Positions 1 to 43,420 of a stretch of DNA of 64,000 bases are shown here, in pieces. Under the pieces are notes generated by a model, which was given only the letters and a program-made list of their open reading frames with translations, had not been told where the DNA came from and ran no database searches. Source of the DNA: Solitalea lacus (GTDB lineage: Bacteria > Bacteroidota > Bacteroidia > Sphingobacteriales > Sphingobacteriaceae); NCBI RefSeq assembly GCF_022014595.1, contig NZ_CP091740.1, forward strand, positions 2,778,200 through 2,842,199. The letters are read 5' to 3'. Position 1 is the first letter of the stretch, and each line of letters starts with the position of its first letter. Made by a program: the position numbers and the translations under genes.

Positions 1-314
1 TTATGAATCTTTATAAAGATATTTACAGACCATATTTTATAATGGTCTTTGGATCTGATTATTCAAAAAAATATCTACAAGGCATTTCAGTTGGATCAAC
101 AATGGATAACTTAAATCATAAGATTTTGAATAGCCTTCCAATCCCTCTTCCACCTTTTTCTGAGCAAAATCGCATTGTAACTAAACTGGAAAAATTGATG
201 CAAATCTGTGATGAGTTGGAGCAAAGCATTTTAGAAAGCAAAACCCAAAACGAACAATTGTTGCAGCAGGTGTTAAAAGAGGTTTTAAGGCCTAAGGAAT
301 TGGAGGTGGGTTGA
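1..314 (+). CDS. hsdS: Type I restriction enzyme specificity subunit HsdS, C-terminal part (5' end outside window)
   Basis: Only about 103 residues lie in the window; full HsdS proteins are roughly 400 residues, so the gene starts upstream and the first in-frame ATG (position 3) is internal. The visible stretch runs from the end of the second target recognition domain into the conserved second coiled coil: the segment LNSLPIPLPPFSEQNRIV is the classic junction, followed by a heptad-rich helix (KLEKLMQICDELEQSILESK). HsdS chooses the DNA sequence recognised by the HsdR/HsdM complex. Its TGA stop overlaps the ATG of the next gene (TGATG), so the ATPase downstream is probably co-translated. HsdM and HsdR are expected upstream. 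Confidence 0.9.
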   Translation, partial: MNLYKDIYRPYFIMVFGSDYSKKYLQGISVGSTMDNLNHKILNSLPIPLPPFSEQNRIVTKLEKLMQICDELEQSILESKTQNEQLLQQVLKEVLRPKELEVG

Positions 315-1945: not shown

Positions 1946-3159
1946 TTATTGATGGCTGAGCTCGTTCAAACGCTTGTGGTAATATGCCTCAAGCGTTTGC
2001 CTTTTTCTGGCTTCCCAGCGTTGCAGGTCCACTTCCCTGTATTCTACCTGATCTTTTAAGATAAAATAGACGGCTTTAATGATTTTATGCGCAATGGCCA
2101 CAATTGCTTTTTTCGGCCCCCTTCGGACAACCAGCGCATGATACTTGCGTTGATAAAAAGTGTTTTTGGTATGCACAGCTGACCAAGCAGCCTCCACCAA
2201 TGTGGTTTTTAAGAGCTTGTTGCCTTTTACGGTACGCTCACTTTTCTTTTTGCCGGCGCTTTCATTGTTGCCCGGACAAACCCCGGCCCAGGAGGCCAGG
2301 TGATGCTCATCGGGAAACGTCTGCACATTCGGTCCGATTTCTCCCAAAAGGTTCATGGCGATGGCCTCGCTTATCCCCGGAACCGTTTTTAACCGGTTCA
2401 CTACTGCCCGATGTGTTTGTTTGTACAGGTCGATTCGGGTTTGGATGACTTCAATTTGCCCGTCGACGTCTTTGATTGCACTTTTAATAGCGCACAACAT
2501 AAACCGATGATGGTCAGTCAAGCGTCCCGATAGGGCTTTGAGTAGTTCTGTTTTTTTGTTTTTAAGCATTCCTTTGGCTAGTTGGTATAATTGTTCGGGG
2601 TCGGTAAGGCCTTGAATAATGGCCTCTATCATCGCCGCGGCACTTACCCCCGTACATTGCTGACCACACTGGCCAGCTTGATGTTGCCATCCTGCAAAAC
2701 TTTATGAAGCCGGTTCACATGCTCTACGCGTTGATTAATGAGCTTTTTCTTGTAGCGCACCAATTCTCGGAGTTCGCGAATAGATTGCTGGGGGATAAAA
2801 CTGGGTTTTAGTAAGCCACTGGCCAGCAGTTTGGCAATCCAGGCACTATCCTTCTTGTCGGTTTTATGCCCAGGGACATTTTTAACATGCCGGGCATTGA
2901 CCAGGATGACCCTGAAATGGGTGTCCAGAATCGTAAAAATCGGTTTTCAGTAAATCCCGGTACTCTCCATGGCCACATCGGTAACGCCTAAGGATTCAAG
3001 CCAGTAACAAAGGGATTCTAAATCCGGCGTGAAGGTGAGAAACGTACGGGTGCATTCTGTAATACCGGTACCTCTTACGGTTGCTACAACCGTTTTTTGA
3101 TGAACGTCTAAACCACAGCAACGTTCGATTTGAAGAGGAAATTCAACAACTTGTTCCAT
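1946..3159 (-). pseudogene. IS110-family transposase, inactivated by a nonsense codon and a frameshift
   Basis: The reading frame is recognisable in three pieces. Residues from the ATG at 3159 give the DEDD/RuvC-like N-terminus (CCGLDVHQKTVVATVRG, then VAMESTGIY). A TGA at 2947-2949 replaces the Trp codon normally found after STGIY. Reading on in the same frame gives the expected middle (NARHVKNVPGHKTDKKDS, then RELVRYKKKLINQRVEHVN) until a TAA at 2644-2646. One missing G in the run at 2647-2651 restores the frame into the C-terminal Transposase_20 domain (VPGISEAIAMNLLGEIGP, SWAGVCPGNNESAGKKK). Two independent lesions mean no full transposase can be made. An in-frame TTG at 3183 is an unlikely alternative start. 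Confidence 0.9.
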
Positions 3160-3222
3160 GAGAAGTGTTTTAGGTAGTAACAATTTTCATGGCCGTTGGT
3201 GAATTCCCAATTCATGTATGTT

Positions 3223-33028: not shown

Positions 33029-34150
33029 TTAATCATTAGTAATTATTTCACCATTGGCAATTGTATAATGAACATTGTAATTATCATCAAAAACCACAAA
33101 ATCAGCCGCATAACCTGGCGCAACTTTACCCAAATAATGATCCAGATTAATCACCTTTGCAGGACCAGTAGAAGCCATGCGAAGCGCTTCTTCAACATCA
33201 ATACCCGCTTTTTCAATACAGTTTTTAACTGCTTTCATCATAGTGAGAGCCGAACCTGCTAAAGTCCCGTTTACATCCACAAACCTATCTGTTTCAGCCT
33301 TATATACATAATCTCCTTTCAGGTTTTCAACCACTGCATCAGTAATGATGAACAAGCGGTCTTTCATAATTTTTTTACTGATTCTTACTGAAGCAAAATC
33401 AGTATGAACACCATCAGGAATAATACTTGAATAAACCGATTCTGAATCATAAATGGCACCAACCAAACCTGGTTCCCTATGATTAAACCCTGACATGGCA
33501 TTGAACAGATGAGTAGCTACTTTTACCCCCATATTGAATACACCATTAGCCTGATCATAAGTAGCATTACTGTGCCCTACAGAAACAATAATATTATTTT
33601 CATGTAAGAACTCAACACACTCTTCAGTACACTGTTCCGGAGCCACTGTAATCATTTTTACAGCTCCTGCACTTTCGTCAACCAGTTTTTTCAGGTGTTT
33701 GATTGTTAAGGGCTGTATAAACCGTTCAATATGAGCTCCTTTTTTCTCCGCATTTATGAAAGGTCCTTCTAAATGCAAACCAATTAAACCCGGTCCGCCT
33801 TCGTCCAGGTACTCTCTGGTTGCTTTAATACATTTAGAGATGGTTTCTGGTGAACTGGTTGGAATGGTGATCAAAAAGCTGGTGGTACCTACTTTTTGAA
33901 AACTTTCGGCAATTCGATAAAGCCCTTGTTTGCTTGCATTGGTAGAAAATAAAATGGCATCGCCCCCGTAAACCTGTAAGTCAATAAAACCCGGAGCAAG
34001 ATTTAATCCGTTTAAATTAAAGGTCCGTATATCACTTGGCAGATCTTTTTCGTTAATAATATCAATGATACTGTTTTCATCAATTAAAATAGCCTTACGA
34101 TACTCGAGACCGGTTCCGGTGTAAATGGTAGAATTTGTTATCGCATACAT
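33029..34150 (-). CDS. nagA: N-acetylglucosamine-6-phosphate deacetylase
   Basis: 373 residues from ATG 34150, where the first beta strand of the metal-hydrolase fold begins (MYAITNSTIYTG); a start 57 nt upstream would add a low-quality extension. Amidohydrolase fold: GLNLAPGFIDLQVYGG, catalytic LHLEGPFINAEKKGAH, HSNATYDQA (metal His), THLFNAMSGFNHREPGLVG, TDAVV with the catalytic Asp. It removes acetate from GlcNAc-6-P in amino-sugar and cell-wall recycling. nagB is not here. It sits inside the split bio gene region. Confidence 0.95.
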   Translation of the reverse strand: MYAITNSTIYTGTGLEYRKAILIDENSIIDIINEKDLPSDIRTFNLNGLNLAPGFIDLQVYGGDAILFSTNASKQGLYRIAESFQKVGTTSFLITIPTSSPETISKCIKATREYLDEGGPGLIGLHLEGPFINAEKKGAHIERFIQPLTIKHLKKLVDESAGAVKMITVAPEQCTEECVEFLHENNIIVSVGHSNATYDQANGVFNMGVKVATHLFNAMSGFNHREPGLVGAIYDSESVYSSIIPDGVHTDFASVRISKKIMKDRLFIITDAVVENLKGDYVYKAETDRFVDVNGTLAGSALTMMKAVKNCIEKAGIDVEEALRMASTGPAKVINLDHYLGKVAPGYAADFVVFDDNYNVHYTIANGEIITND

Positions 34151-34224
34151 ACTAAAAGGTTTGGTTTTACAAGGGATAAATAGAGTAAATAGATTCTTGA
34201 TTACCAACTACCAATAGTTATTTT

Positions 34225-35349
34225 TTATAAGTTTTGATTGATTTCATTTGCCAATCTAGCTACATCTTCATCACTATTAAACAAGTGAAGGCAAATGCGT
34301 AATCTTTCTTTGCCTTTTTCAACGGTTGGCGAGCGAACCGCTCCTACACTAAACCCGTTTTTTTTCAAACTTTCTGCTGCAGCAACCACCGTCTCATTTC
34401 CCTCCACAATAATAGACTGAATAGGAGCACTACTCTCTAACAACTGAATTCTGCTACTCAGTTTCGACTTGAACAAGTCAATCTTATCCCTTAATAATTT
34501 TTGAAGTTCTGGATGCACATTTAAATAATGATAAGCCATTTTAACGGCAACCAACGAATGAAAGGGCGCTGCTGTTGTAAAAATGAAACTGCGTGCTGTA
34601 TTAATTAAGAAATCCCGCAGGTTAGTTGAGCCTAAAACAATGGCCCCGTGAGAACCAATGGCTTTCCCAAAGGTGTGAATGCGCACAAACACTTTACTTT
34701 CAAGTCCTAATTCGGAAACCAAACCCTTACCACAATACCCTAACACGCCGGCTCCATGCGCTTCGTCAATAATGATATTTGCATTGTATTTGGCTGCCAA
34801 TTCAACCATGGCTTTTAAATCAGGCGAATCACCATCCATTGAATAAATGCTTTCAATACCTATAAAAATGTTGCCCCTTGCTACTTTTAGTTTCTGCTCC
34901 AGACTGCCTAAATCATTATGCATGAATTTATACCTGGTTGCATAACTCAATCTTGCCCCATCAATAATACAGGCGTGAACCTTTTCATCTAAAATAATTG
35001 TATCGCCTTTTTGCGGAATGGAGGAAAAAACGCCCAAATTGGCATCATAGCCCGAATTAAACAATAAACCCGCCTGAGCATTATGTTGAGCGCTTAACCA
35101 TTGCTCCAATTCTGTCGCGTAATTGGTATTGCCTGAAATTAATCTTGAGCCAGTAGAACCAATCAAATAATCGGGATACTTGTTCAATTCTTCATCAATA
35201 AGTTGTTTAAGCTCTGCACAGTGGGCTAAGCCTAAATAATCATTCGATGAAAAATCAACCAAATCAGAATCGGGCTTAAGTGCCCTAAGTAAATGCTTTG
35301 ATTGTAGGTTGGTTAACTGACTGGCTAAAAAGGCCTCTATAGTGTTCAT
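34225..35349 (-). CDS. bioF: 8-amino-7-oxononanoate synthase
   Basis: 374 residues from the ATG at 35349; a longer frame from 35400 adds an unlikely 17 residues. PLP enzyme of the alpha-oxoamine synthase family: SSNDYLGLA (33-41), GSTGSRLISGNTNYATELE, DEAHGAG (195-201), and Schiff-base lysine K229 in HTFGKAIGSHGA. It condenses pimeloyl-thioester with alanine, the first committed step of biotin synthesis. nagA lies directly downstream. Confidence 0.94.
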   Translation of the reverse strand: MNTIEAFLASQLTNLQSKHLLRALKPDSDLVDFSSNDYLGLAHCAELKQLIDEELNKYPDYLIGSTGSRLISGNTNYATELEQWLSAQHNAQAGLLFNSGYDANLGVFSSIPQKGDTIILDEKVHACIIDGARLSYATRYKFMHNDLGSLEQKLKVARGNIFIGIESIYSMDGDSPDLKAMVELAAKYNANIIIDEAHGAGVLGYCGKGLVSELGLESKVFVRIHTFGKAIGSHGAIVLGSTNLRDFLINTARSFIFTTAAPFHSLVAVKMAYHYLNVHPELQKLLRDKIDLFKSKLSSRIQLLESSAPIQSIIVEGNETVVAAAESLKKNGFSVGAVRSPTVEKGKERLRICLHLFNSDEDVARLANEINQNL

Positions 35350-35445
35350 TAAGGTTGTGTATTGAGCATGCAATTTAAAAAGATGCAATGAAAGCACCAT
35401 ATTAATACCTCAATAAGTCAATTTATGCTCATATATAAACTTTCC

Positions 35446-35490
35446 CTTCATTTCTTTTGCTTACACAAAAGAAATCAAGCAAAAAAAGTA
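35446..35490. repeat. REP-like palindromic intergenic sequence
   Basis: Perfect inverted repeat ATTTCTTTT/AAAAGAAAT at 35450-35458 and 35467-35475 with an 8-nt loop, embedded in a pattern (TTTCTTTTGCTTxxACAAAAGAAA) that recurs in intergenic regions of unrelated bacteria. Only one copy was noticed here. Confidence 0.5.
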
Positions 35491-35606
35491 TAAATCCGAA
35501 AGCTTCAAATCTTCCTGTCGGAATGTCTTGTTGAAATCACTCAATCAAATTTGTACCGATATTTTTTATTATTTGCCTTCATCTAAATCACCTATTCCCA
35601 AGAATT

Positions 35607-38600
35607 CTAATTCGTTTCTGTTTGTTTTATCAATCGTTCAATTGTCGCTAATTCCATAAACCTACAAAATGGATTGGCAAGCTTAATTTGTTCGGGTGAT
35701 TTACAATCAGGTTCAAATAATCTTGGGCTCCCAACCATAATAAAAATCGCTTTTGCTCTTGAGACAGCTACGTTGAATCTATTGGGGCTATACAAAAAGT
35801 CCATTCCCCGAGGGGCATCTTCAGGTGATGAACTTGCCAAGCTGTAAATAATCACAGGGGCTTCCTGTCCCTGAAATTTATCAACTGTCCCAACCTCTAC
35901 ATTCGGTATTCTTTTTTGCAATTCAAAAACATTACTGTTATATGGCGTAATAATTTTTATATCACCAAATTGTAAAAGACGGCTGTTATTTTTTTCATCT
36001 ACCCAAAAAACATCTCCTTTTGTCAGTTCCTGAATGATTTGTACAATTTCATCAATTTCTTCAATGCTCAAATTCGTATTGCCTTCATGCTCTACCGGCT
36101 TGTAAAACAGGCCTGAACCTTTGTAACAGGTATTGCCTTCAATTTTTTGATTTTCATCAAGACCGTCAACAGAATGAAGTCTTGACTCATAAAACATTTC
36201 AGAATCAAAAGAACAGATACTCGGATGCATTCTCCATGTTTTGTCTAAAAAGATTCCTTTTGTTTCAGGAATTGTTTTTCTTCCTTCAAGCAAATGTTCC
36301 AATGCAGACACATCAGTTCCTTCGGGGTGGACTCCCTTGATAGGTTGTTTAAGCTGTTGATGGTCACCCAATAATATGATGTTCTTTGCAGAATGCGATA
36401 CAACAATTGTATCAATCAAGGCAAATTGACCTGCCTCATCTATAAACAGATAATCCACTGAACCAATTAATTTTTCGTTACACCACATAAAACTAGTCCC
36501 GGCTATAATATGATTATCAGAAAGTTTAGAAACTACCTGATCCACATTCTTAGCAATATCCCACGGGTATTCCTTTTCATCGGATGAGGAGCCTTTATAT
36601 TGTATTTTTAAGTCAAAATTTTCACTGTCTGCAATTTGCTTTACTTTATAAAGAATATTGACAATAACTTTATGGCTTAGAGCAGTAATTCCAATCCTTT
36701 TCCCGTTTTTAAGCAATTCAAAAATCATATGACTTGCAGTATAACTTTTTCCGGCTCCTGGAGGTCCCTGAATCGGTAAATAACTGTTATCCAATTTTGT
36801 CGCCCAATCGATACTTTTTTCTACAGTATTATTACTGCTCATAACAGTGTCGGAAACCCTTGGAATATTATTTAATAATAAATCGCGAGCAGTCTTGTAT
36901 TCAGAGCTAGTGCTATCGAATCCGTTCTCCACGATCCATTCTGCGAACCGTATTAAAGCATTCTCTTTATCTTTAGTTGGGAATCTTTCAAATTTGAACA
37001 ATGTTTCAGGATGTATATCCTTAATTTTAGGACCTTTTCTTAATTTAATTATGTTTTTAGTTTCATCAAATTCAACAATATCACCAAAAGTAATATCGCT
37101 TTCATTTTTTATCTGATTTCCTACTTTTAGTTCACATTCCTGATTAGGAAAAGTATAAGAATCTATTACACTACGCTTGTCGGTAACTCTTTCTCCTTTA
37201 AATTGTAAACAGGTAAGTGCAGCCTTTTCATCCAATAATTCGTCTAGTTGCAACTCTTTGATTCTGAAATACTCCCACCAAAAAGATTTTTCTTCCCGAC
37301 GATACCAATCAAGCATATTGGCAAGGAGATATTTAGCTTGTTCGGTTGAAGACCGTTCTTCAGATAAAGGAGATACGTCGTGCATCAGGGCTTTATATAT
37401 AGGCTCAATACGTTCTAAATGGGCAATTATATTTTCAGACACTTCTACTTCATTTAGAACAGGTCTTGGTATGTTTTCAGAATTAATGATTAGAATTTCC
37501 CGTTCTTTTTCAAGCCACTTGTGAAGATTTTGAGTTGAAAAACAATCATCCCGATTGTAAAGTTCAATGGCCTCTTTCATTTCATTCATCACTTCTTCTG
37601 TCACTTCTTCCAACCTATTAGATTCCAATAAAAATTCAAACATTGACTTGAATTTCGAAAGTGAGCGTAAATCCATTTCCCTGGTATAACCATGATATTT
37701 TTCCAAATCTTTCAATGAATACTTTTCGATTCCCGCCCTGATGGATTGCCTTAAAATACGGTGCAAATCAACAAATGATTGAGTACGCAAAAGAATATCT
37801 ATTTCATTTTCTTTTGTCGCATATTTTCCCATCATTCTTTTCAGTGCTGCGGTTTCATATGGAGCAAAATGATAAATATGAAGTTTCGGGTATTCCTTTC
37901 TTTTTTTAAATACAAAATCAACAAATTCCTCCAGAGCGGCTTTTTCCTGCTCTATATTGGTTACCCAGATCTTATGATAATCATTTTGATAAACCCATCC
38001 AAATAAATACTCCAATCCAGTCGGTTCAACCAAAGGATCTCCTTCAAAATCTAAGTAAATATCTCCACCAGTAGGTTCAGGCAAATTGTAAAAGCCTGTA
38101 TTCTCAACTCTTTCTAAAATTTCATATGTAGGTTTGTTTGTAGTCCTAGCTTCATTCTGAAGACGTGCCTGTTCCCTCAACTTTACAAATGTTTCAATGG
38201 AACCTTTTGTTGGTTTAAATGGTAACGGGAGAGGCAGTTTCGACATCGCATCCAATGTTTCAACTCCATGAAGTTTTACTTCCTTAATTTGAGAATTTCC
38301 CATACCGGCTATAAAACTTAAATGATCATCGTCCCTTCTTATCTTATTGCAATGTTCCCACCAATTACAAATTTCACAATGTGAACAAGGGTCAGGATAA
38401 GTGAAAACCGGAGTTTGAACAGCTTCATCCAGTCTCCTTTTCATTAAGCGTAGATAAGAAATGTAGTCATTTACCCTGTATTTCATTTCATCTTCAGGGG
38501 TCCTTACACGCATATATTCCGGCAACACGCCTTGTATTTCTTTTAAAATTTCAGAATAAAGGGCAATTTGCAAAATTGTACCTGCTCTTGTTTCTGTCGA

Positions 38601-39002
38601 CAATTTAGTATCTATAACTTCATAAGACCAATCGCCCAATTCACTTGGCACTGGCACTTTCATTAAAAAGTCTGCCCAACCCTGCCATTTTTCATTACAC
38701 AGCCTTGCCTGATAAATATAATCTATTCCCTCTCTCATGGCATCAATCGTCTTTTGTTGAGCACCTGATTCATATTGGCCAATTTTTAAAATACTGTGAC
38801 CTTGCTGTTCAAGAGTTGTCAAAAATGAATTTTCAAAATCGAGGCCTCTTTCTCTTAATAAATCCAAAACTCTGTTTGTATTTACAGGCTTTTCCAATAA
38901 ACCTTCGGCAACGTCTTTGTTAAGTTTTGACAAGTGTTTGCAATGCACATGATTGGATAAATCAGATGCAGAAAAAACAAATTGATTATTCAATTTCCTC
39001 AT
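35607..39002 (-). CDS. TM0106-family RecB/Cas4-like nuclease fused to RNase H-like exonuclease and SF1 helicase
   Basis: 1131 residues, one polypeptide. (1) N-terminal RecB/Cas4-like nuclease, about 1-220: GWADF (Asp111), VIDTKL (Asp131/Lys133), and Fe-S-type cysteines C21, C206, C209, C212, C218. (2) RNase H-like 3'-5' exonuclease, about 310-500: first acidic pair DxE at 318/320 (YLDFEGDP), HFAPYET, and ELYNRDDCFST near 485. (3) SF1B helicase like Dna2/UPF1, about 740-1131: Walker A GPPGAGKS (746-753), DEAGQ (855-859), LDKTWRMHP, then VGTVDKFQGQEAPVIIYS and NRFNVAVSRAKA. Such enzymes can unwind and cut nucleic acid ends. No partner gene is attached in an operon; the AT-rich flank and neighbouring pseudogenes suggest an accessory, possibly defence-related locus. 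Confidence 0.9.
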   Translation of the reverse strand: MRKLNNQFVFSASDLSNHVHCKHLSKLNKDVAEGLLEKPVNTNRVLDLLRERGLDFENSFLTTLEQQGHSILKIGQYESGAQQKTIDAMREGIDYIYQARLCNEKWQGWADFLMKVPVPSELGDWSYEVIDTKLSTETRAGTILQIALYSEILKEIQGVLPEYMRVRTPEDEMKYRVNDYISYLRLMKRRLDEAVQTPVFTYPDPCSHCEICNWWEHCNKIRRDDDHLSFIAGMGNSQIKEVKLHGVETLDAMSKLPLPLPFKPTKGSIETFVKLREQARLQNEARTTNKPTYEILERVENTGFYNLPEPTGGDIYLDFEGDPLVEPTGLEYLFGWVYQNDYHKIWVTNIEQEKAALEEFVDFVFKKRKEYPKLHIYHFAPYETAALKRMMGKYATKENEIDILLRTQSFVDLHRILRQSIRAGIEKYSLKDLEKYHGYTREMDLRSLSKFKSMFEFLLESNRLEEVTEEVMNEMKEAIELYNRDDCFSTQNLHKWLEKEREILIINSENIPRPVLNEVEVSENIIAHLERIEPIYKALMHDVSPLSEERSSTEQAKYLLANMLDWYRREEKSFWWEYFRIKELQLDELLDEKAALTCLQFKGERVTDKRSVIDSYTFPNQECELKVGNQIKNESDITFGDIVEFDETKNIIKLRKGPKIKDIHPETLFKFERFPTKDKENALIRFAEWIVENGFDSTSSEYKTARDLLLNNIPRVSDTVMSSNNTVEKSIDWATKLDNSYLPIQGPPGAGKSYTASHMIFELLKNGKRIGITALSHKVIVNILYKVKQIADSENFDLKIQYKGSSSDEKEYPWDIAKNVDQVVSKLSDNHIIAGTSFMWCNEKLIGSVDYLFIDEAGQFALIDTIVVSHSAKNIILLGDHQQLKQPIKGVHPEGTDVSALEHLLEGRKTIPETKGIFLDKTWRMHPSICSFDSEMFYESRLHSVDGLDENQKIEGNTCYKGSGLFYKPVEHEGNTNLSIEEIDEIVQIIQELTKGDVFWVDEKNNSRLLQFGDIKIITPYNSNVFELQKRIPNVEVGTVDKFQGQEAPVIIYSLASSSPEDAPRGMDFLYSPNRFNVAVSRAKAIFIMVGSPRLFEPDCKSPEQIKLANPFCRFMELATIERLIKQTETN

Positions 39003-39344
39003 TTTTATTATCTAGAATTTGTTTTAAATCACCAATAATTTAGCCAAAACCTAAGGCAAAAAAGGTAAAAAAAGTGCTTACCCATGATTTGGGTTCGCTA
39101 CTACACACCATTCGCAAGTGTCTTGGAACTAATGATAGGTGAAATTTTTGGCATGGTAAAGAACATCATGACCTACACAACCTGACCCATAACGTGTTGC
39201 TACATCTTCTCTCAGCTTGTAACGACTCGCGCGTTCTAGTACCATATTAATAATATTATTAAATAATTAAATATTAATATTAATTAGCTGTTATAAAAAA
39301 TTATATTGAGTTATAATTTTTTATACCCTATAACTATCCACTCT
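39003..39344. other. Non-coding region between the nuclease-helicase gene and the exonuclease pseudogene
   Basis: 342 nt. GC-rich first half without a convincing reading frame, then a markedly AT-rich part ending in a perfect 14-bp inverted repeat (39292-39325). Nothing else recognised; it is the divergent promoter region of two genes. Confidence 0.55.
39292..39325. repeat. Perfect 14-bp inverted repeat ahead of the exonuclease gene
   Basis: TATAAAAAATTATA and its exact complement around a 6-nt loop (TTGAGT), ending 19 nt before the ATG at 39345. Could be an operator or a terminator of an upstream transcript. Confidence 0.55.
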
Positions 39345-39913
39345 ATGCTGCTCTTTTTTGATACTGAAACAACAGGACTTCCTTCTAACTGAAGGCTCCA
39401 GTCACGGATTTAAATAATTGGCCTCGGCTTGTTCAATTGGCATATCTACTATATGACAATAACGGAAACAAAATTACCGAAGGAAACCATATAATTAAGC
39501 CTGATAGGTTTACCATTCCATTAGAAGCTTCAAGAGTTCATGGAATTACTACTGATAGAGCTAATAGAGAAGGAAAAGAATTGATTAATGTCTTAAAGGA
39601 TTTTCAAATATTACTTAATAAGGCAGAATGCCTTGTTGCGCATAACATGAGCTTCGATGAAAAAGTCATTGGAGCTGAGTTTTTGAGAAACCAAATGACA
39701 AATGGAGTCGGAACCAAAAGGAAGATCTGTACCATGGAAAAAACAACAATTTTTTGTGCTATTAATGGACCTTATGGATATAAATGGCCCAAGCTTTCGG
39801 AATTGTATTTTAAGCTTTTTGGAGAAACATTTGAAGAAGCTCACAATGCATTTGTTGATATTAAAGCAACAGCTAAGTGTTATTGGGAGTTGAAAAAACG
39901 TTCTAAAATTTAA
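39345..39913 (+). pseudogene. DnaQ-like 3'-5' exonuclease broken by a 1-bp deletion
   Basis: The ATG at 39345 begins FFDTETTGLPSN (ExoI motif DxE) but meets a TGA at 39390-39392. Shifting by one base after 'TG' gives KAPVTDLNNWPRLVQLAYLLYD and then continues without interruption to 39913, with ExoII CLVAHNMSFDEKV and ExoIII EAHNAFVDIKATAKCYWEL. A lost G of a Trp codon (TGG) explains it. The product would be about 189 residues, close to normal. Either a pseudogene or a sequencing error; the reading downstream of the lesion is intact. Confidence 0.85.
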
Positions 39914-40111
39914 AAAATGCATTCAATGCACATTCGGCAAGCACTAGCTGAAAGGGTTTTGTTCCTAAGAATTTTATTTTTCACGAGTGTAAACTTGAAC
40001 AAAATCTGCCACCAAAGCTCACATTCATCATGAGATTCTTTTGAGTGCGGCGTGAAACTAGGAAATAGCAAAACCATTAATCTTTCCCTCAAAAAGGATA
40101 AATTAGACCCA

Positions 40112-40981
40112 ATGAATTTTTACATATCTGCAATCTTATTGGGCTTAAGTTTATCTGCCATTGCCTTGGGAATTTTCATCTCAATGAAAATTTTTAATAT
40201 TCCTGATATTACTACTGATGGAAGTTATACACTTGGCGCAGTAATTACGGCTATTTGTTTAACCAATGGTATTTCAATGGTACCAACTTTTTTGTTTACG
40301 GTATTGAGCGGGGCCGTTGCTGGCAGCATAACTGGCTTCATTCACACCAAATTAAAGGTAAATGCCCTTTTAGCGGGCATTTTAACAATGACGGCTTTGT
40401 ATTCTGTCAACCTAAGCATCTTAGGGCGCTCTAATTTGCCTTTAGTAAACGTTAGAAATCTATTCCAAACGTTGCAGCTAAGCTCAAATGACACTCTTAA
40501 TAGTTTAATGCTACTCTTACTGTTTATTGGCTTGTTGTTTACCGGGTTAACACTTTTACTAAAAACCGACTTTGGCTTGGCCATGCGTGCTACTGGCAAC
40601 AGTGAAAGCATGATAAGGGCTTTAGGGGTAAATACCAACCGGATGAAAATTATTGGCATAGCAATCTCAAATGGATTGGTTGCTACCGCCGGTTTTTTAG
40701 TGACTCAATACCAAGGTTTTGCAGATATTAATATGGGTATAGGGATTGTGATTGTTGGCTTAGGTTCGGTAATGATAGGAGAGGCGCTAAATCATTGGTT
40801 CCATATCCAAAGCATCTGGATGCAGCTCTTACTGGTTATTTTAGGAGCAATTGCTTTTCAACTGGTTCTGGCCTTTACATTATCCTTAGGTATAGATCCT
40901 AATTTGTTAAAGTTAATTACTGCTGTTTTTGTACTGATAATTGTAAGCATTCCTCAAATCCGTTTCCGTAAGCAATCATGA
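40112..40981 (+). CDS. ABC transporter permease (COG4120-like)
   Basis: 289 residues from ATG 40112; an upstream in-frame GTG at 40052 would add 20 hydrophilic residues before the first helix and is less likely. Eight or nine hydrophobic segments, with FNIPDITTDGSYTLGAVITA typical of this permease family (BPD_transp_2), and GLAMRATGNSESMIRALGVN. These transporters usually work with a substrate-binding lipoprotein (COG2984) and an ATPase (COG1101). The ATPase follows with a 4-nt overlap; no binding protein gene is next to it. Confidence 0.88.
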   Translation: MNFYISAILLGLSLSAIALGIFISMKIFNIPDITTDGSYTLGAVITAICLTNGISMVPTFLFTVLSGAVAGSITGFIHTKLKVNALLAGILTMTALYSVNLSILGRSNLPLVNVRNLFQTLQLSSNDTLNSLMLLLLFIGLLFTGLTLLLKTDFGLAMRATGNSESMIRALGVNTNRMKIIGIAISNGLVATAGFLVTQYQGFADINMGIGIVIVGLGSVMIGEALNHWFHIQSIWMQLLLVILGAIAFQLVLAFTLSLGIDPNLLKLITAVFVLIIVSIPQIRFRKQS

Positions 40982-41727
40982 TTAAGGTAAAGAACATTTC
41001 GAAGAATTTTAATAAAGGAAAGGCCAATGAGGTTAATGCGCTGCTTGACATCAATTTAACAATCAACAGGGGCGAATTTGCTGTAGTAATTGGGGCCAAT
41101 GGCTCAGGAAAGTCTACTTTTTTAAATTTAATTGCCGGAAATCTGTTTCCAAGTTCAGGAACGATTGAGATTCAGCAGCAAAACGTCACTAATTTACCCG
41201 ATTACAAGCGTAGCAAATGGATTGCACGTGTTTTTCAAAACCCGTTAAGTGGAACGGCTTCCGAATTGAATATTCTCGACAATTTCAGACTTGCTGCCAT
41301 TAGAACACAGTCCAAGAAACTTAAAATAGGCACTTCCAAAGCATTTATTCAGAAGGTAAAAGAAAAGGTATCTACCTTAAAAATGGGCTTGGAAAACAAA
41401 TTAGATCAACCAATGGGGTCTCTCTCTGGAGGACAGCGACAGGCACTTACCTTATTAATGAGTGTAATGGATGAAGCCAGGATTCTATTACTGGATGAAC
41501 CAACGGCAGCTCTTGATCCGCGGTCGGCTAATTTTGTAATGCAAACTGCCAACCAACTAATTTCCGACTATCAACTTACAGCCATTTTAGTTACACATAA
41601 TCTTAAAGATGCCTACACCTATGGCAACCGGATTATCCAGTTTTCGGAAGGAAAAATTATAAGGGATTTATCCGCTGAAACAAAACAGGAACTGGAACTA
41701 AATCAATTATTTAGTTGGTTTGAATAA
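40978..41727 (+). CDS. ABC transporter ATP-binding protein (COG1101-like)
   Basis: 249 residues. Walker A GANGSGKSTFLN (about 39-50), Q-loop VFQNPLSGTA, ABC signature LSGGQRQALTLLM, Walker [14 protein letters not shown]-loop ILVTHNLKDA. The stop/start overlap with the permease (ATGA) implies one operon and one importer. Family members are annotated as tryptophan/tyrosine or unknown-substrate uptake; the substrate here is not determined. Confidence 0.92.
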   Translation: MIKVKNISKNFNKGKANEVNALLDINLTINRGEFAVVIGANGSGKSTFLNLIAGNLFPSSGTIEIQQQNVTNLPDYKRSKWIARVFQNPLSGTASELNILDNFRLAAIRTQSKKLKIGTSKAFIQKVKEKVSTLKMGLENKLDQPMGSLSGGQRQALTLLMSVMDEARILLLDEPTAALDPRSANFVMQTANQLISDYQLTAILVTHNLKDAYTYGNRIIQFSEGKIIRDLSAETKQELELNQLFSWFE

Positions 41728-43076: not shown

Positions 43077-43109
43077 TTTTGCAATTTATAAAAGCAAATC
43101 CTAATTTTG
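43077..43109 (+). promoter_or_regulatory. Bacteroidota-type promoter of the B12 riboswitch-btuB unit
   Basis: TTTTG (43077-43081), 20-nt spacer, TAATTTTG (43102-43109). The predicted start of transcription (about 43115) coincides with the first base-paired stretch of the riboswitch. Confidence 0.75.
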
Positions 43110-43114
43110 CATTG

Positions 43115-43336
43115 CATTTGGTTTGCGTTTTACCCTACTCAGAAACGCAATTAAAAGGGAATCAGGTGAAAATCCTGAACAGGCCCGCTGCTGTAAACTC
43201 AATTACTTATAGTTCATTGTTTAAATAGTATTCATTGAATTAAAGAGTAAAAATTTCTTCGGCCTACAAGCCACTGTTGAACACACAACAACGGGAAGGC
43301 GCTGCAAGAAAAGAGTAAGTCAGAAGACCTGCCAAT
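43115..43336 (+). promoter_or_regulatory. Cobalamin (AdoCbl) riboswitch
   Basis: The B12 box is present nearly to consensus as AAGTCAGAAGACCTGCCA (43317-43334). Upstream are GGGAATCAGGTG, AATCCTGAACAGGCCCGCTGCTGTAA (conserved core, 43158-43196) and GCCACTG...CGGGAAGGCG (43269-43300). It precedes a TonB-dependent receptor, the classic arrangement for repressing B12 uptake when cobalamin is plentiful. Confidence 0.97.
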
Positions 43337-43420
43337 GCTCGATAATTATTTCATAGCTTTCGGGGACCAAAGCTGGAATGTGAATACTGCTAGCGTATTT
43401 CCATTTACTTTCCTTGTTAG

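What the first reader, a model, noticed from the sequence alone, without database searches (positions are those of the whole stretch)
35607..39002. Three-enzyme fusion: Cas4-like nuclease, RNase H-like exonuclease and SF1 helicase
One 1131-residue polypeptide carries an Fe-S-type RecB/Cas4-like nuclease, a DEDD exonuclease and a Dna2/UPF1-like helicase, without any obvious partner and near several broken genes. It could process phage, plasmid or R-loop substrates. The role of TM0106-family proteins is unclear.
Basis: partly seen in the sequence, partly recalled or inferred. Interest (0 to 1): 0.6.

Follow-up and report, generated by a model that had tools for sequence, protein, structure and literature searches.

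The report
Mobile Dna2-like nuclease–exonuclease–helicase fusion
A single large bacterial protein joins two DNA-cutting enzymes to a DNA-unwinding motor; it moves between unrelated bacteria and plasmids and sits among antivirus genes in its closest relatives, so it is more likely an undescribed anti-phage or anti-plasmid weapon than routine DNA-repair equipment.

Summary
In detail: window 35607-39002 (-) encodes an intact 1131-aa protein with a TIGR03491/COG2251 half (PD-(D/E)XK nuclease with four Fe-S-type cysteines, then an RNase_H_2 DEDDy exonuclease) and a UPF1/Dna2-type SF1 helicase. All three active sites are conserved in 34-36 homologues, and selection is purifying (dN 0.19, dS about 2). 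The architecture was noted in 2014 without a function.

New here is the context. The gene is absent from three congeners and found in one other genome among 120 relatives, yet is 73% identical in a Flavobacterium, with DNA similarity confined to the gene. Near-full-length homologues lie on 58 plasmids. Its nearest relatives sit beside BREX, Wadjet, type III restriction, PglZ or Mrr genes. In alphaproteobacterial plasmids a divergent WYL regulator precedes it (27 of 41 records with that regulator), and McrB-McrC or SbcCD-like genes often follow. One lineage keeps it at a fixed, non-defence location.

Best reading: a mobile Dna2-like DNA-degrading effector of antiviral or anti-plasmid defence, used with exchangeable partners; this copy is an orphan. 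Repair is the main rival. No activity was tested, and the predicted structure is poor.

The parts
35607..39002 (-). Complete CDS of the 1131-aa fusion (TM0106/TIGR03491-family nuclease, DEDDy exonuclease, SF1 UPF1/Dna2-type helicase)
   Evidence: Open frame; TIGR03491 240 bits, PF13482, PF13086, PF13087; 73% identical over full length to F. dankookense
38313..38972 (-). N-terminal PD-(D/E)XK (RecB/Cas4/Dna2-like) nuclease, about aa 11-230; D14, E57, Q98, D111, D131-x-K133, Q145, Y149
   Evidence: TIGR03491; PF12705 in 21/31 homologous N-termini; residue conservation
38940..38942 (-). C21, first of four predicted Fe-S cysteines
   Evidence: Conserved together with C209/C212/C218; all four lost together in one clade
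38349..38378 (-). C209-x2-C212-x5-C218, the other three predicted Fe-S cysteines
37512..38060 (-). RNase_H_2 / DEDDy 3'-5' exonuclease domain, aa 315-497; D318-x-E320, H378, E383, D402, D412, Y482-x3-D486
   Evidence: PF13482 70.9 bits; invariant residues
36924..37349 (-). Predicted long helices around a beta-rich region (stalk and beta-barrel as in Dna2), aa 552-693; low-confidence model
   Evidence: Secondary structure of the AlphaFold model; Dna2 as top fold match
36348..36800 (-). Helicase domain 1A, aa 735-885: Q745, Walker A GPPGAGK 746-752, DEAGQ 855-859, GDxxQL 879-884
   Evidence: PF13086; conservation
35727..36311 (-). Helicase domain 2A, aa 898-1092: R924, TVDKFQGQE 1039-1047, R1075, R1082
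   Evidence: PF13087 102.7 bits; conservation
39345..39913 (+). Broken divergent DEDDh exonuclease: DxE motif in a 15-codon fragment that ends in TGA, remainder in another frame from 39437; not found at related loci, so probably not a partner
   Evidence: Sequence; RNase_T PF00929 45.7 bits for the remainder; tblastn against all loci held finds only the window's own copy
35311..40091 (.). Segment without counterpart in the congeners; holds the fusion gene and the broken exonuclease
   Evidence: Congener DNA similarity ends at 35310 and resumes at 40092; the flanking arms lie at separate loci in congeners

Best explanation
It is a mobile, Dna2-like nuclease-helicase that most likely destroys invading DNA. 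Inferred mechanism: a DNA end or single-stranded region of phage or plasmid DNA is bound by the UPF1/Dna2-type SF1 motor; the Fe-S PD-(D/E)XK domain, a threaded nuclease as in Dna2, cuts the strand that passes through it, while the DEDDy domain trims the 3' end of the other strand, so that one polypeptide degrades both strands. In relatives the ends or the alarm would come from exchangeable partners (McrB-McrC, SbcCD-like, BREX, type III restriction), with expression controlled by a divergent WYL regulator; the window's copy acts alone or has lost its partner. Shown: the three-domain architecture, intact and conserved active sites, purifying selection, horizontal transfer, plasmid carriage, defence neighbourhoods, and the WYL and McrBC linkage in one clade. 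Inferred: substrate, polarity, Fe-S cluster, cooperation with partners, protection against phage or plasmids.
For: Architecture and catalytic residues. Fe-S cysteines lost all-or-none in one clade while nuclease residues stay. Dna2 crystal structures are the top fold matches, aligned over 1205 columns. dN 0.19 against dS about 2 versus F. dankookense, low dN in every domain. Absent from three congeners, present in one other genome among 120 relatives and in 2 of 300 Flavobacterium, yet 70-73% identical in two Flavobacterium species with DNA similarity limited to the gene. 64 plasmid records, 58 near full length, 25 conjugative. Clade mates adjoin integrases + PglZ + BrxHII-type helicase, Mrr, type III R-M, Wadjet JetB + type III R-M, BREX brxA/brxC. 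WYL beside it in 27 of 41 plasmid records; McrB in the same orientation with 0-9 bp gaps or overlap in five records, and McrC-McrB in a distant branch in Acaryochloris.
Against: No phage or plasmid protection has been tested. The window locus has no defence neighbour. Partners differ between loci, which also fits a generic DNA-processing enzyme. Several plasmid copies lie beside DNA-repair genes (imuA/dinB/dnaE2 in L063, L064; SbcCD-like in L069, L073). Family f80 keeps the gene at one fixed non-defence place. PADLOC has no model for the family. The AlphaFold model is poor (mean pLDDT 62.6, pTM 0.41). Plasmids and islands are rich in defence genes anyway; one of 16 control loci held a BREX-3 system.
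Confidence: 0.6

Rival explanations
1. DNA repair enzyme: an accessory end-resection or excision nuclease-helicase, analogous to Dna2 or to B. subtilis MrfAB, carried as optional repair equipment.
For: PF13482 is the family of the MrfB/YprB exonuclease (MrfB described in PMC12458937; the Pfam link of YprB is from my own knowledge); Dna2-like fold match; neighbours imuA/dinB/dnaE2, alkB and SbcCD-like genes on some plasmids; WYL regulators such as PafBC also drive DNA-damage responses (PMC9122601, PMC11804915); fixed location in f80.
Against: Patchy, transferred, absent from most relatives; the window's clade sits with restriction/BREX/Wadjet genes, not core repair genes; several copies are disrupted (L006 frameshift, L063 split gene, IS5 in two plasmids).
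Confidence: 0.22
2. Transcript or R-loop surveillance: the UPF1-like motor unwinds phage RNA or RNA-DNA hybrids and the two nucleases degrade them, as proposed for the CnuH helicases of CoCoNuT systems.
For: Best sequence matches to solved structures are UPF1/NAM7, ahead of Dna2, SEN1 and SMUBP-2; CnuH, a UPF1-like helicase, is coupled to McrBC-type genes and predicted to target RNA (PMC11090510); some relatives of this protein also adjoin McrBC.
Against: Fe-S PD-(D/E)XK nucleases of the Cas4/Dna2 type act on single-stranded DNA (established knowledge; PMC4716839, PMC5704561); the domain order matches Dna2, the top fold match.
Confidence: 0.1
3. Plasmid or island self-help: it processes the mobile element's own DNA (replication, conjugation or exclusion of rivals) and gives no defence to the host as such.
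For: Common on conjugative plasmids, in some cases beside rep or transfer genes.
Against: Also chromosomal and solitary; no constant linkage with rep, tra or integrase genes; not found in phage records or viral contigs.
Confidence: 0.08
4. Inert relic in this genome after transfer.
For: No partner, broken exonuclease next door, rearranged flanks.
Against: Intact 3.4-kb frame, all catalytic residues kept, dN/dS about 0.1.
Confidence: 0.05

Closest known systems
COG2251 / TIGR03491 (TM0106 family RecB-like putative nuclease)
   Same: PD-(D/E)XK + PF13482 DEDD exonuclease, frequently followed by a tandem of AAA domains (PMC3985635); 240 bits over a cut-off of 97
   Different: The family is functionally undescribed; this report adds context, active-site conservation and a proposed role
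Eukaryotic Dna2 nuclease-helicase
   Same: Order Fe-S nuclease, beta-barrel with stalk, SF1 5'-3' helicase (PMC4716839); top fold match
   Different: DEDDy exonuclease between nuclease and helicase; bacterial, mobile and dispensable; no RPA-binding part tested
UvrD-Cas4-like fusions of microbial defence islands (PMC5704561)
   Same: Cas4-like nuclease joined to an SF1 helicase; type III R-M neighbours
   Different: Other helicase family (UPF1/Dna2-like here, UvrD there) and an extra DEDDy domain
MrfAB / YprAB (B. subtilis mitomycin repair)
   Same: An exonuclease of the same superfamily working with a helicase
   Different: No DUF1998 SF2 helicase; one polypeptide; additional Fe-S nuclease
Mokosh (MkoA/MkoC)
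   Same: UPF1-like helicase core; best PADLOC match, 142 bits, helicase part only
   Different: No kinase or PLD nuclease partner; other nuclease domains
CoCoNuT CnuH with CnuB/CnuC (PMC11090510)
   Same: UPF1-like helicase next to McrBC-type genes, as in the alphaproteobacterial relatives
   Different: No Cas4-like or DEDD domains reported for CnuH; the window copy has no McrBC

Membership tests
TIGR03491 / COG2251 with helicase | Full-length match over the curated score | tested here: met
   240.1 bits, cut-off 97.45, positions 2-462 of 462
TIGR03491 / COG2251 with helicase | PF13482 exonuclease and C-terminal AAA pair | tested here: met
   PF13482, PF13086, PF13087 over cut-off
PD-(D/E)XK nuclease of RecB/Cas4 type | Profile match of the N-terminal domain | tested here: inconclusive
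   None for the window copy; PF12705 in 21 of 31 homologues, best 2.4e-6
PD-(D/E)XK nuclease of RecB/Cas4 type | Catalytic GxxD, D/E-x-K, QxxxY | tested here: met
   D111, D131-x-K133, Q145-x3-Y149 conserved in all homologues with the domain; D131 is E in one
PD-(D/E)XK nuclease of RecB/Cas4 type | One N-terminal and three C-terminal Fe-S cysteines | tested here: met
   C21, C209, C212, C218; lost together in L018, L067, L076; metal content not testable
CRISPR Cas4 | cas1/cas2 neighbourhood | tested here: not met
   No such genes seen in the window or in the loci inspected
SF1 UPF1-like helicase | Q motif, Walker A/B, motifs III-VI | tested here: met
   Invariant or nearly so in 35-36 homologues
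Dna2 | Nuclease - beta-barrel/stalk - SF1 helicase | tested here: inconclusive
   Order agrees and Dna2 is the top fold match, but from a low-confidence model
Dna2 | No other catalytic domain between nuclease and helicase | tested here: not met
   DEDDy domain aa 315-497
MrfAB | YprA helicase with DUF1998 | tested here: not met
   No such match
UvrD-Cas4 fusion | UvrD-type helicase | tested here: not met
   Helicase matches AAA_11/AAA_12 and UPF1, not UvrD
Mokosh | Kinase partner or PLD nuclease | tested here: not met
   Match to the helicase part only; none among neighbours
CoCoNuT type II/III | CnuB/CnuC McrBC pair beside the helicase | tested here: not met
   None at the window; McrB-McrC present in relatives L070, L072, L076
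Anti-phage/anti-plasmid defence system | Protection of a host | not testable with these tools
   Needs phage and plasmid challenge

The most novel reading that the evidence does not exclude
An undescribed defence family: a WYL-regulated, Dna2-like triple enzyme that serves as a common DNA-degrading effector and is plugged into different sensors (McrBC, SbcCD-like, a ubiquitin-like conjugation operon, SIR2-HerA, BREX), with an ancestral mobile form and one lineage that domesticated it at a fixed chromosomal site.
Probability: 0.4. Interest if true: 0.7.

Novelty: new variant of a known kind. Interest (0 to 1): 0.5.

Why it matters
Many genomes and plasmids carry genes labelled 'TM0106 family RecB-like putative nuclease', a name with no function behind it; no paper found in the library is about the family. 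If it is a defence effector, it adds a Dna2-type machine with two nucleases to bacterial immunity, explains why McrBC and WYL genes recur beside it, and gives directly testable operons in culturable rhizobia and sphingomonads. It also bears on where the Dna2 architecture comes from.

Tried and rejected
A fixed chromosomal (housekeeping) locus in the window's genus: rejected, no homologue in three congeners. The DEDDh neighbour as partner: rejected, broken and absent from the other loci. Type III R-M as universal partner, as for UvrD-Cas4: rejected, seen only in two clade mates (L039, L040). SbcCD-like genes as a general partner: 23 plasmid records hold them, only eight near-identical ones beside the fusion. 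Flanking repeats as insertion marks: one 15-bp direct repeat (35393-35407, 39238-39252), about what chance gives in AT-rich DNA by my own estimate; no tRNA in the window. Odd base composition as a sign of transfer: not useful, GC 35.5% against 37.7% (sd 2.5) for other genes. Homologues in phages and viral contigs: none found. Solved structures by a profile of the N-terminus: nothing significant. My first reading that the G038 copy is broken was wrong: its TGA is the normal stop. PADLOC tallies of neighbours (143 proteins near mobile copies matched 187 models; 96 control proteins 32; 39 in f80 35) point the same way but count models, not genes, and are not a test.

Full report
1. Observation. 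The window holds an intact 1131-codon frame at 35607-39002 on the minus strand. TIGR03491 covers aa 11-497 well over its curated cut-off, PF13482 (RNase_H_2) covers aa 315-497, and AAA_11/AAA_12 cover the C-terminus. The best sequence matches among solved structures are UPF1/NAM7, Dna2, SEN1 and SMUBP-2, all over the helicase. The genome has only this copy over the TIGR03491 cut-off.

2. Active sites. In 34-36 homologues, 28-73% identical, the nuclease residues D14, E57, Q98, D111, K133, Q145 and Y149 are invariant (D131 is E once); the DEDDy set D318, E320, H378, E383, D402, D412, Y482, D486 is invariant; the helicase motifs are invariant or nearly so. Four cysteines (C21, C209, C212, C218) have the one-plus-three spacing of Fe-S nucleases. 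All four are present in 30 sequences (two more, L009 and L010, are truncated or gapped at one of them, and L008 lacks the region) and all four are absent in L018, L067 and L076, which form one supported clade and keep every catalytic position. That all-or-none pattern is what a shared cluster predicts. The nuclease fold is weakly but repeatedly recognised: PF12705 in 21 of 31 N-termini.

3. Structure. Only seven sequences could be used for AlphaFold, and the model is poor (mean pLDDT 62.6, pTM 0.41). Even so the top PDB matches are Dna2 structures over 1205 columns, ahead of UPF1, and the predicted long helices around strands at aa 552-693 fit the stalk and beta-barrel that lie between nuclease and helicase in Dna2 (PMC4716839). 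I treat this as support for order and kind, not as a test of membership; the DEDDy domain in any case sets the protein apart from Dna2.

4. Selection. Against F. dankookense dN is 0.19 and dS about 2.1, with dN 0.14-0.27 in each region. dS is near saturation, so the ratio (about 0.1) is approximate, but the gene is plainly maintained.

5. Mobility. No homologue exists in three congeners, and only one other genome (G038, 50% identity) among 120 relatives has it. In a phylum sample 19 of 396 genomes match, two of them over the helicase only; in Flavobacterium 2 of 300. Yet F. dankookense (73%) and F. glaciei (70%), which belong to another family, are its nearest kin, and DNA similarity to them covers 35652-39006, the gene and nothing else. 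Congener similarity stops at 35310 and resumes at 40092; the two flanks lie at separate loci in the congeners, and genes that neighbour them there lie at 2.24 and 2.33 Mb in this genome, against 2.81 Mb for the window gene. So the gene sits at a rearranged junction. Sixty-four plasmid records hold homologues, 58 of them near full length, 25 on plasmids typed as conjugative; none were found in phage records or viral contigs.

6. Neighbourhoods of the window's clade. F. dankookense: two integrases upstream, then a UvrD-like helicase, a kinase (by eye), PglZ and a BrxHII-type helicase downstream. Flavobacterium MAG L007: Mrr-type restriction endonuclease 36 bp upstream, integrase downstream. G038: type III Mod-like and Res-like genes. 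G256: Wadjet JetB and type III Mod and Res, Res 103 bp away and divergent. G293: brxA and brxC, with a PLD-helicase protein on the other side. Rhizobial plasmids L062 and L063: SIR2, HerA-like and KTSC genes. The window copy itself has none of this.

7. Neighbourhoods of the second clade. In alphaproteobacterial plasmids a WYL regulator lies divergently beside the fusion. Searching from the regulator's side and comparing coordinates by hand, 27 of 41 plasmid records with that regulator have it next to the fusion, mostly 60-600 bp away and at most about 2.1 kb; eight of these are near-identical sphingomonad plasmids, so independent cases are fewer. McrB (AAA_5) and McrC (PF10117) follow the fusion in Leisingera and R. 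daejeonense. From the McrB side, six records hold it at full length, five of them directly behind the fusion with 0-9 bp between or overlapping. McrC-McrB also precede the fusion in Acaryochloris, in a distant branch of the tree, so the pairing probably arose at least twice. SbcD/SbcC-like genes adjoin it in Sphingobium and Mesorhizobium, but most of those genes occur without it. A ubiquitin-like conjugation operon ends 20 bp before the fusion in Phenylobacterium.

8. Counter-evidence. In family f80 (L043, L047-L052) most copies keep one place, between a glucose/sorbosone-dehydrogenase-like gene and a prolyl-oligopeptidase-like gene, which looks domesticated. These copies nest inside the plasmid-rich clade in a quick tree, so the fixed form is probably derived. 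Repair genes lie near some plasmid copies.

9. Interpretation. Defence is the best reading: transfer, plasmid carriage, disrupted copies, defence neighbours across phyla, and linkage with WYL regulators, a class that controls phage-defence and DNA-damage genes (PMC9122601, PMC9122588). The mechanism is inferred from Dna2 and DEDD chemistry. One caution from Dna2: its motor does not drive threading through the nuclease (PMC4716839), so coupling here cannot be assumed.

10. Known and new. The architecture was reported in 2014 for COG2251, without a role beyond presumed 3'-5' exonuclease activity (PMC3985635). A different helicase fusion, UvrD-Cas4, was linked to type III restriction in 2017 (PMC5704561). 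Searches for TM0106 and TIGR03491 found no paper on the family, and PADLOC (2023) has no model for it. The library lacks most subscription papers, so prior description cannot be excluded.

Noticed in passing
39345-39913 (+): DEDDh exonuclease gene broken after 15 codons, divergent from the fusion; no relative found at the other fetched loci.
   Followed up: yes
L018, L067, L076: A clade of the family has lost all four Fe-S cysteines but keeps the nuclease catalytic positions.
   Followed up: partly
L043, L047-L052: Family f80 keeps the fusion at a fixed site between a glucose/sorbosone-dehydrogenase-like gene and a peptidase S9 gene: a possible domestication.
   Followed up: partly
L066:8624-15357: Plasmid operon of multiubiquitin, E2, E1, DUF6527 and a ClpP-like gene ending 20 bp before the fusion gene in Phenylobacterium.
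   Followed up: partly
L061:5606-15390: SNF2-type helicase, sacsin-domain protein and the fusion in a tight row on an Ensifer conjugative plasmid; possible three-gene system.
   Followed up: partly
L006:10001-13355 and L063:12001-15397: The F. glaciei copy is frameshifted near aa 1003 and the R. johnstonii copy is annotated as two genes; IS5 lies in the copies of two other plasmids (NZ_CP019604, NZ_CP014001).
   Followed up: partly
43101-43350 (+): Cobalamin riboswitch (Rfam RF00174, 85.4 bits) ahead of a TonB receptor and genes that look like cobalamin salvage.
   Followed up: no
33029-35400 and 40052-41727: The bioF/nagA arm and the ABC-transporter arm that flank the insert lie at separate loci in the congeners, so a rearrangement joined them here.
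   Followed up: partly
1946-3183 (-): Two ORFs that look, by eye, like pieces of an IS110-type transposase.
   Followed up: no
3-314 (+): Looks, by eye, like the C-terminal end of a type I restriction specificity subunit, cut by the window edge.
   Followed up: no
L091:3112-15928: The Leisingera plasmid that carries fusion-McrBC also has a WYL gene with a BREX-3 system elsewhere on it, met as a control locus.
   Followed up: no
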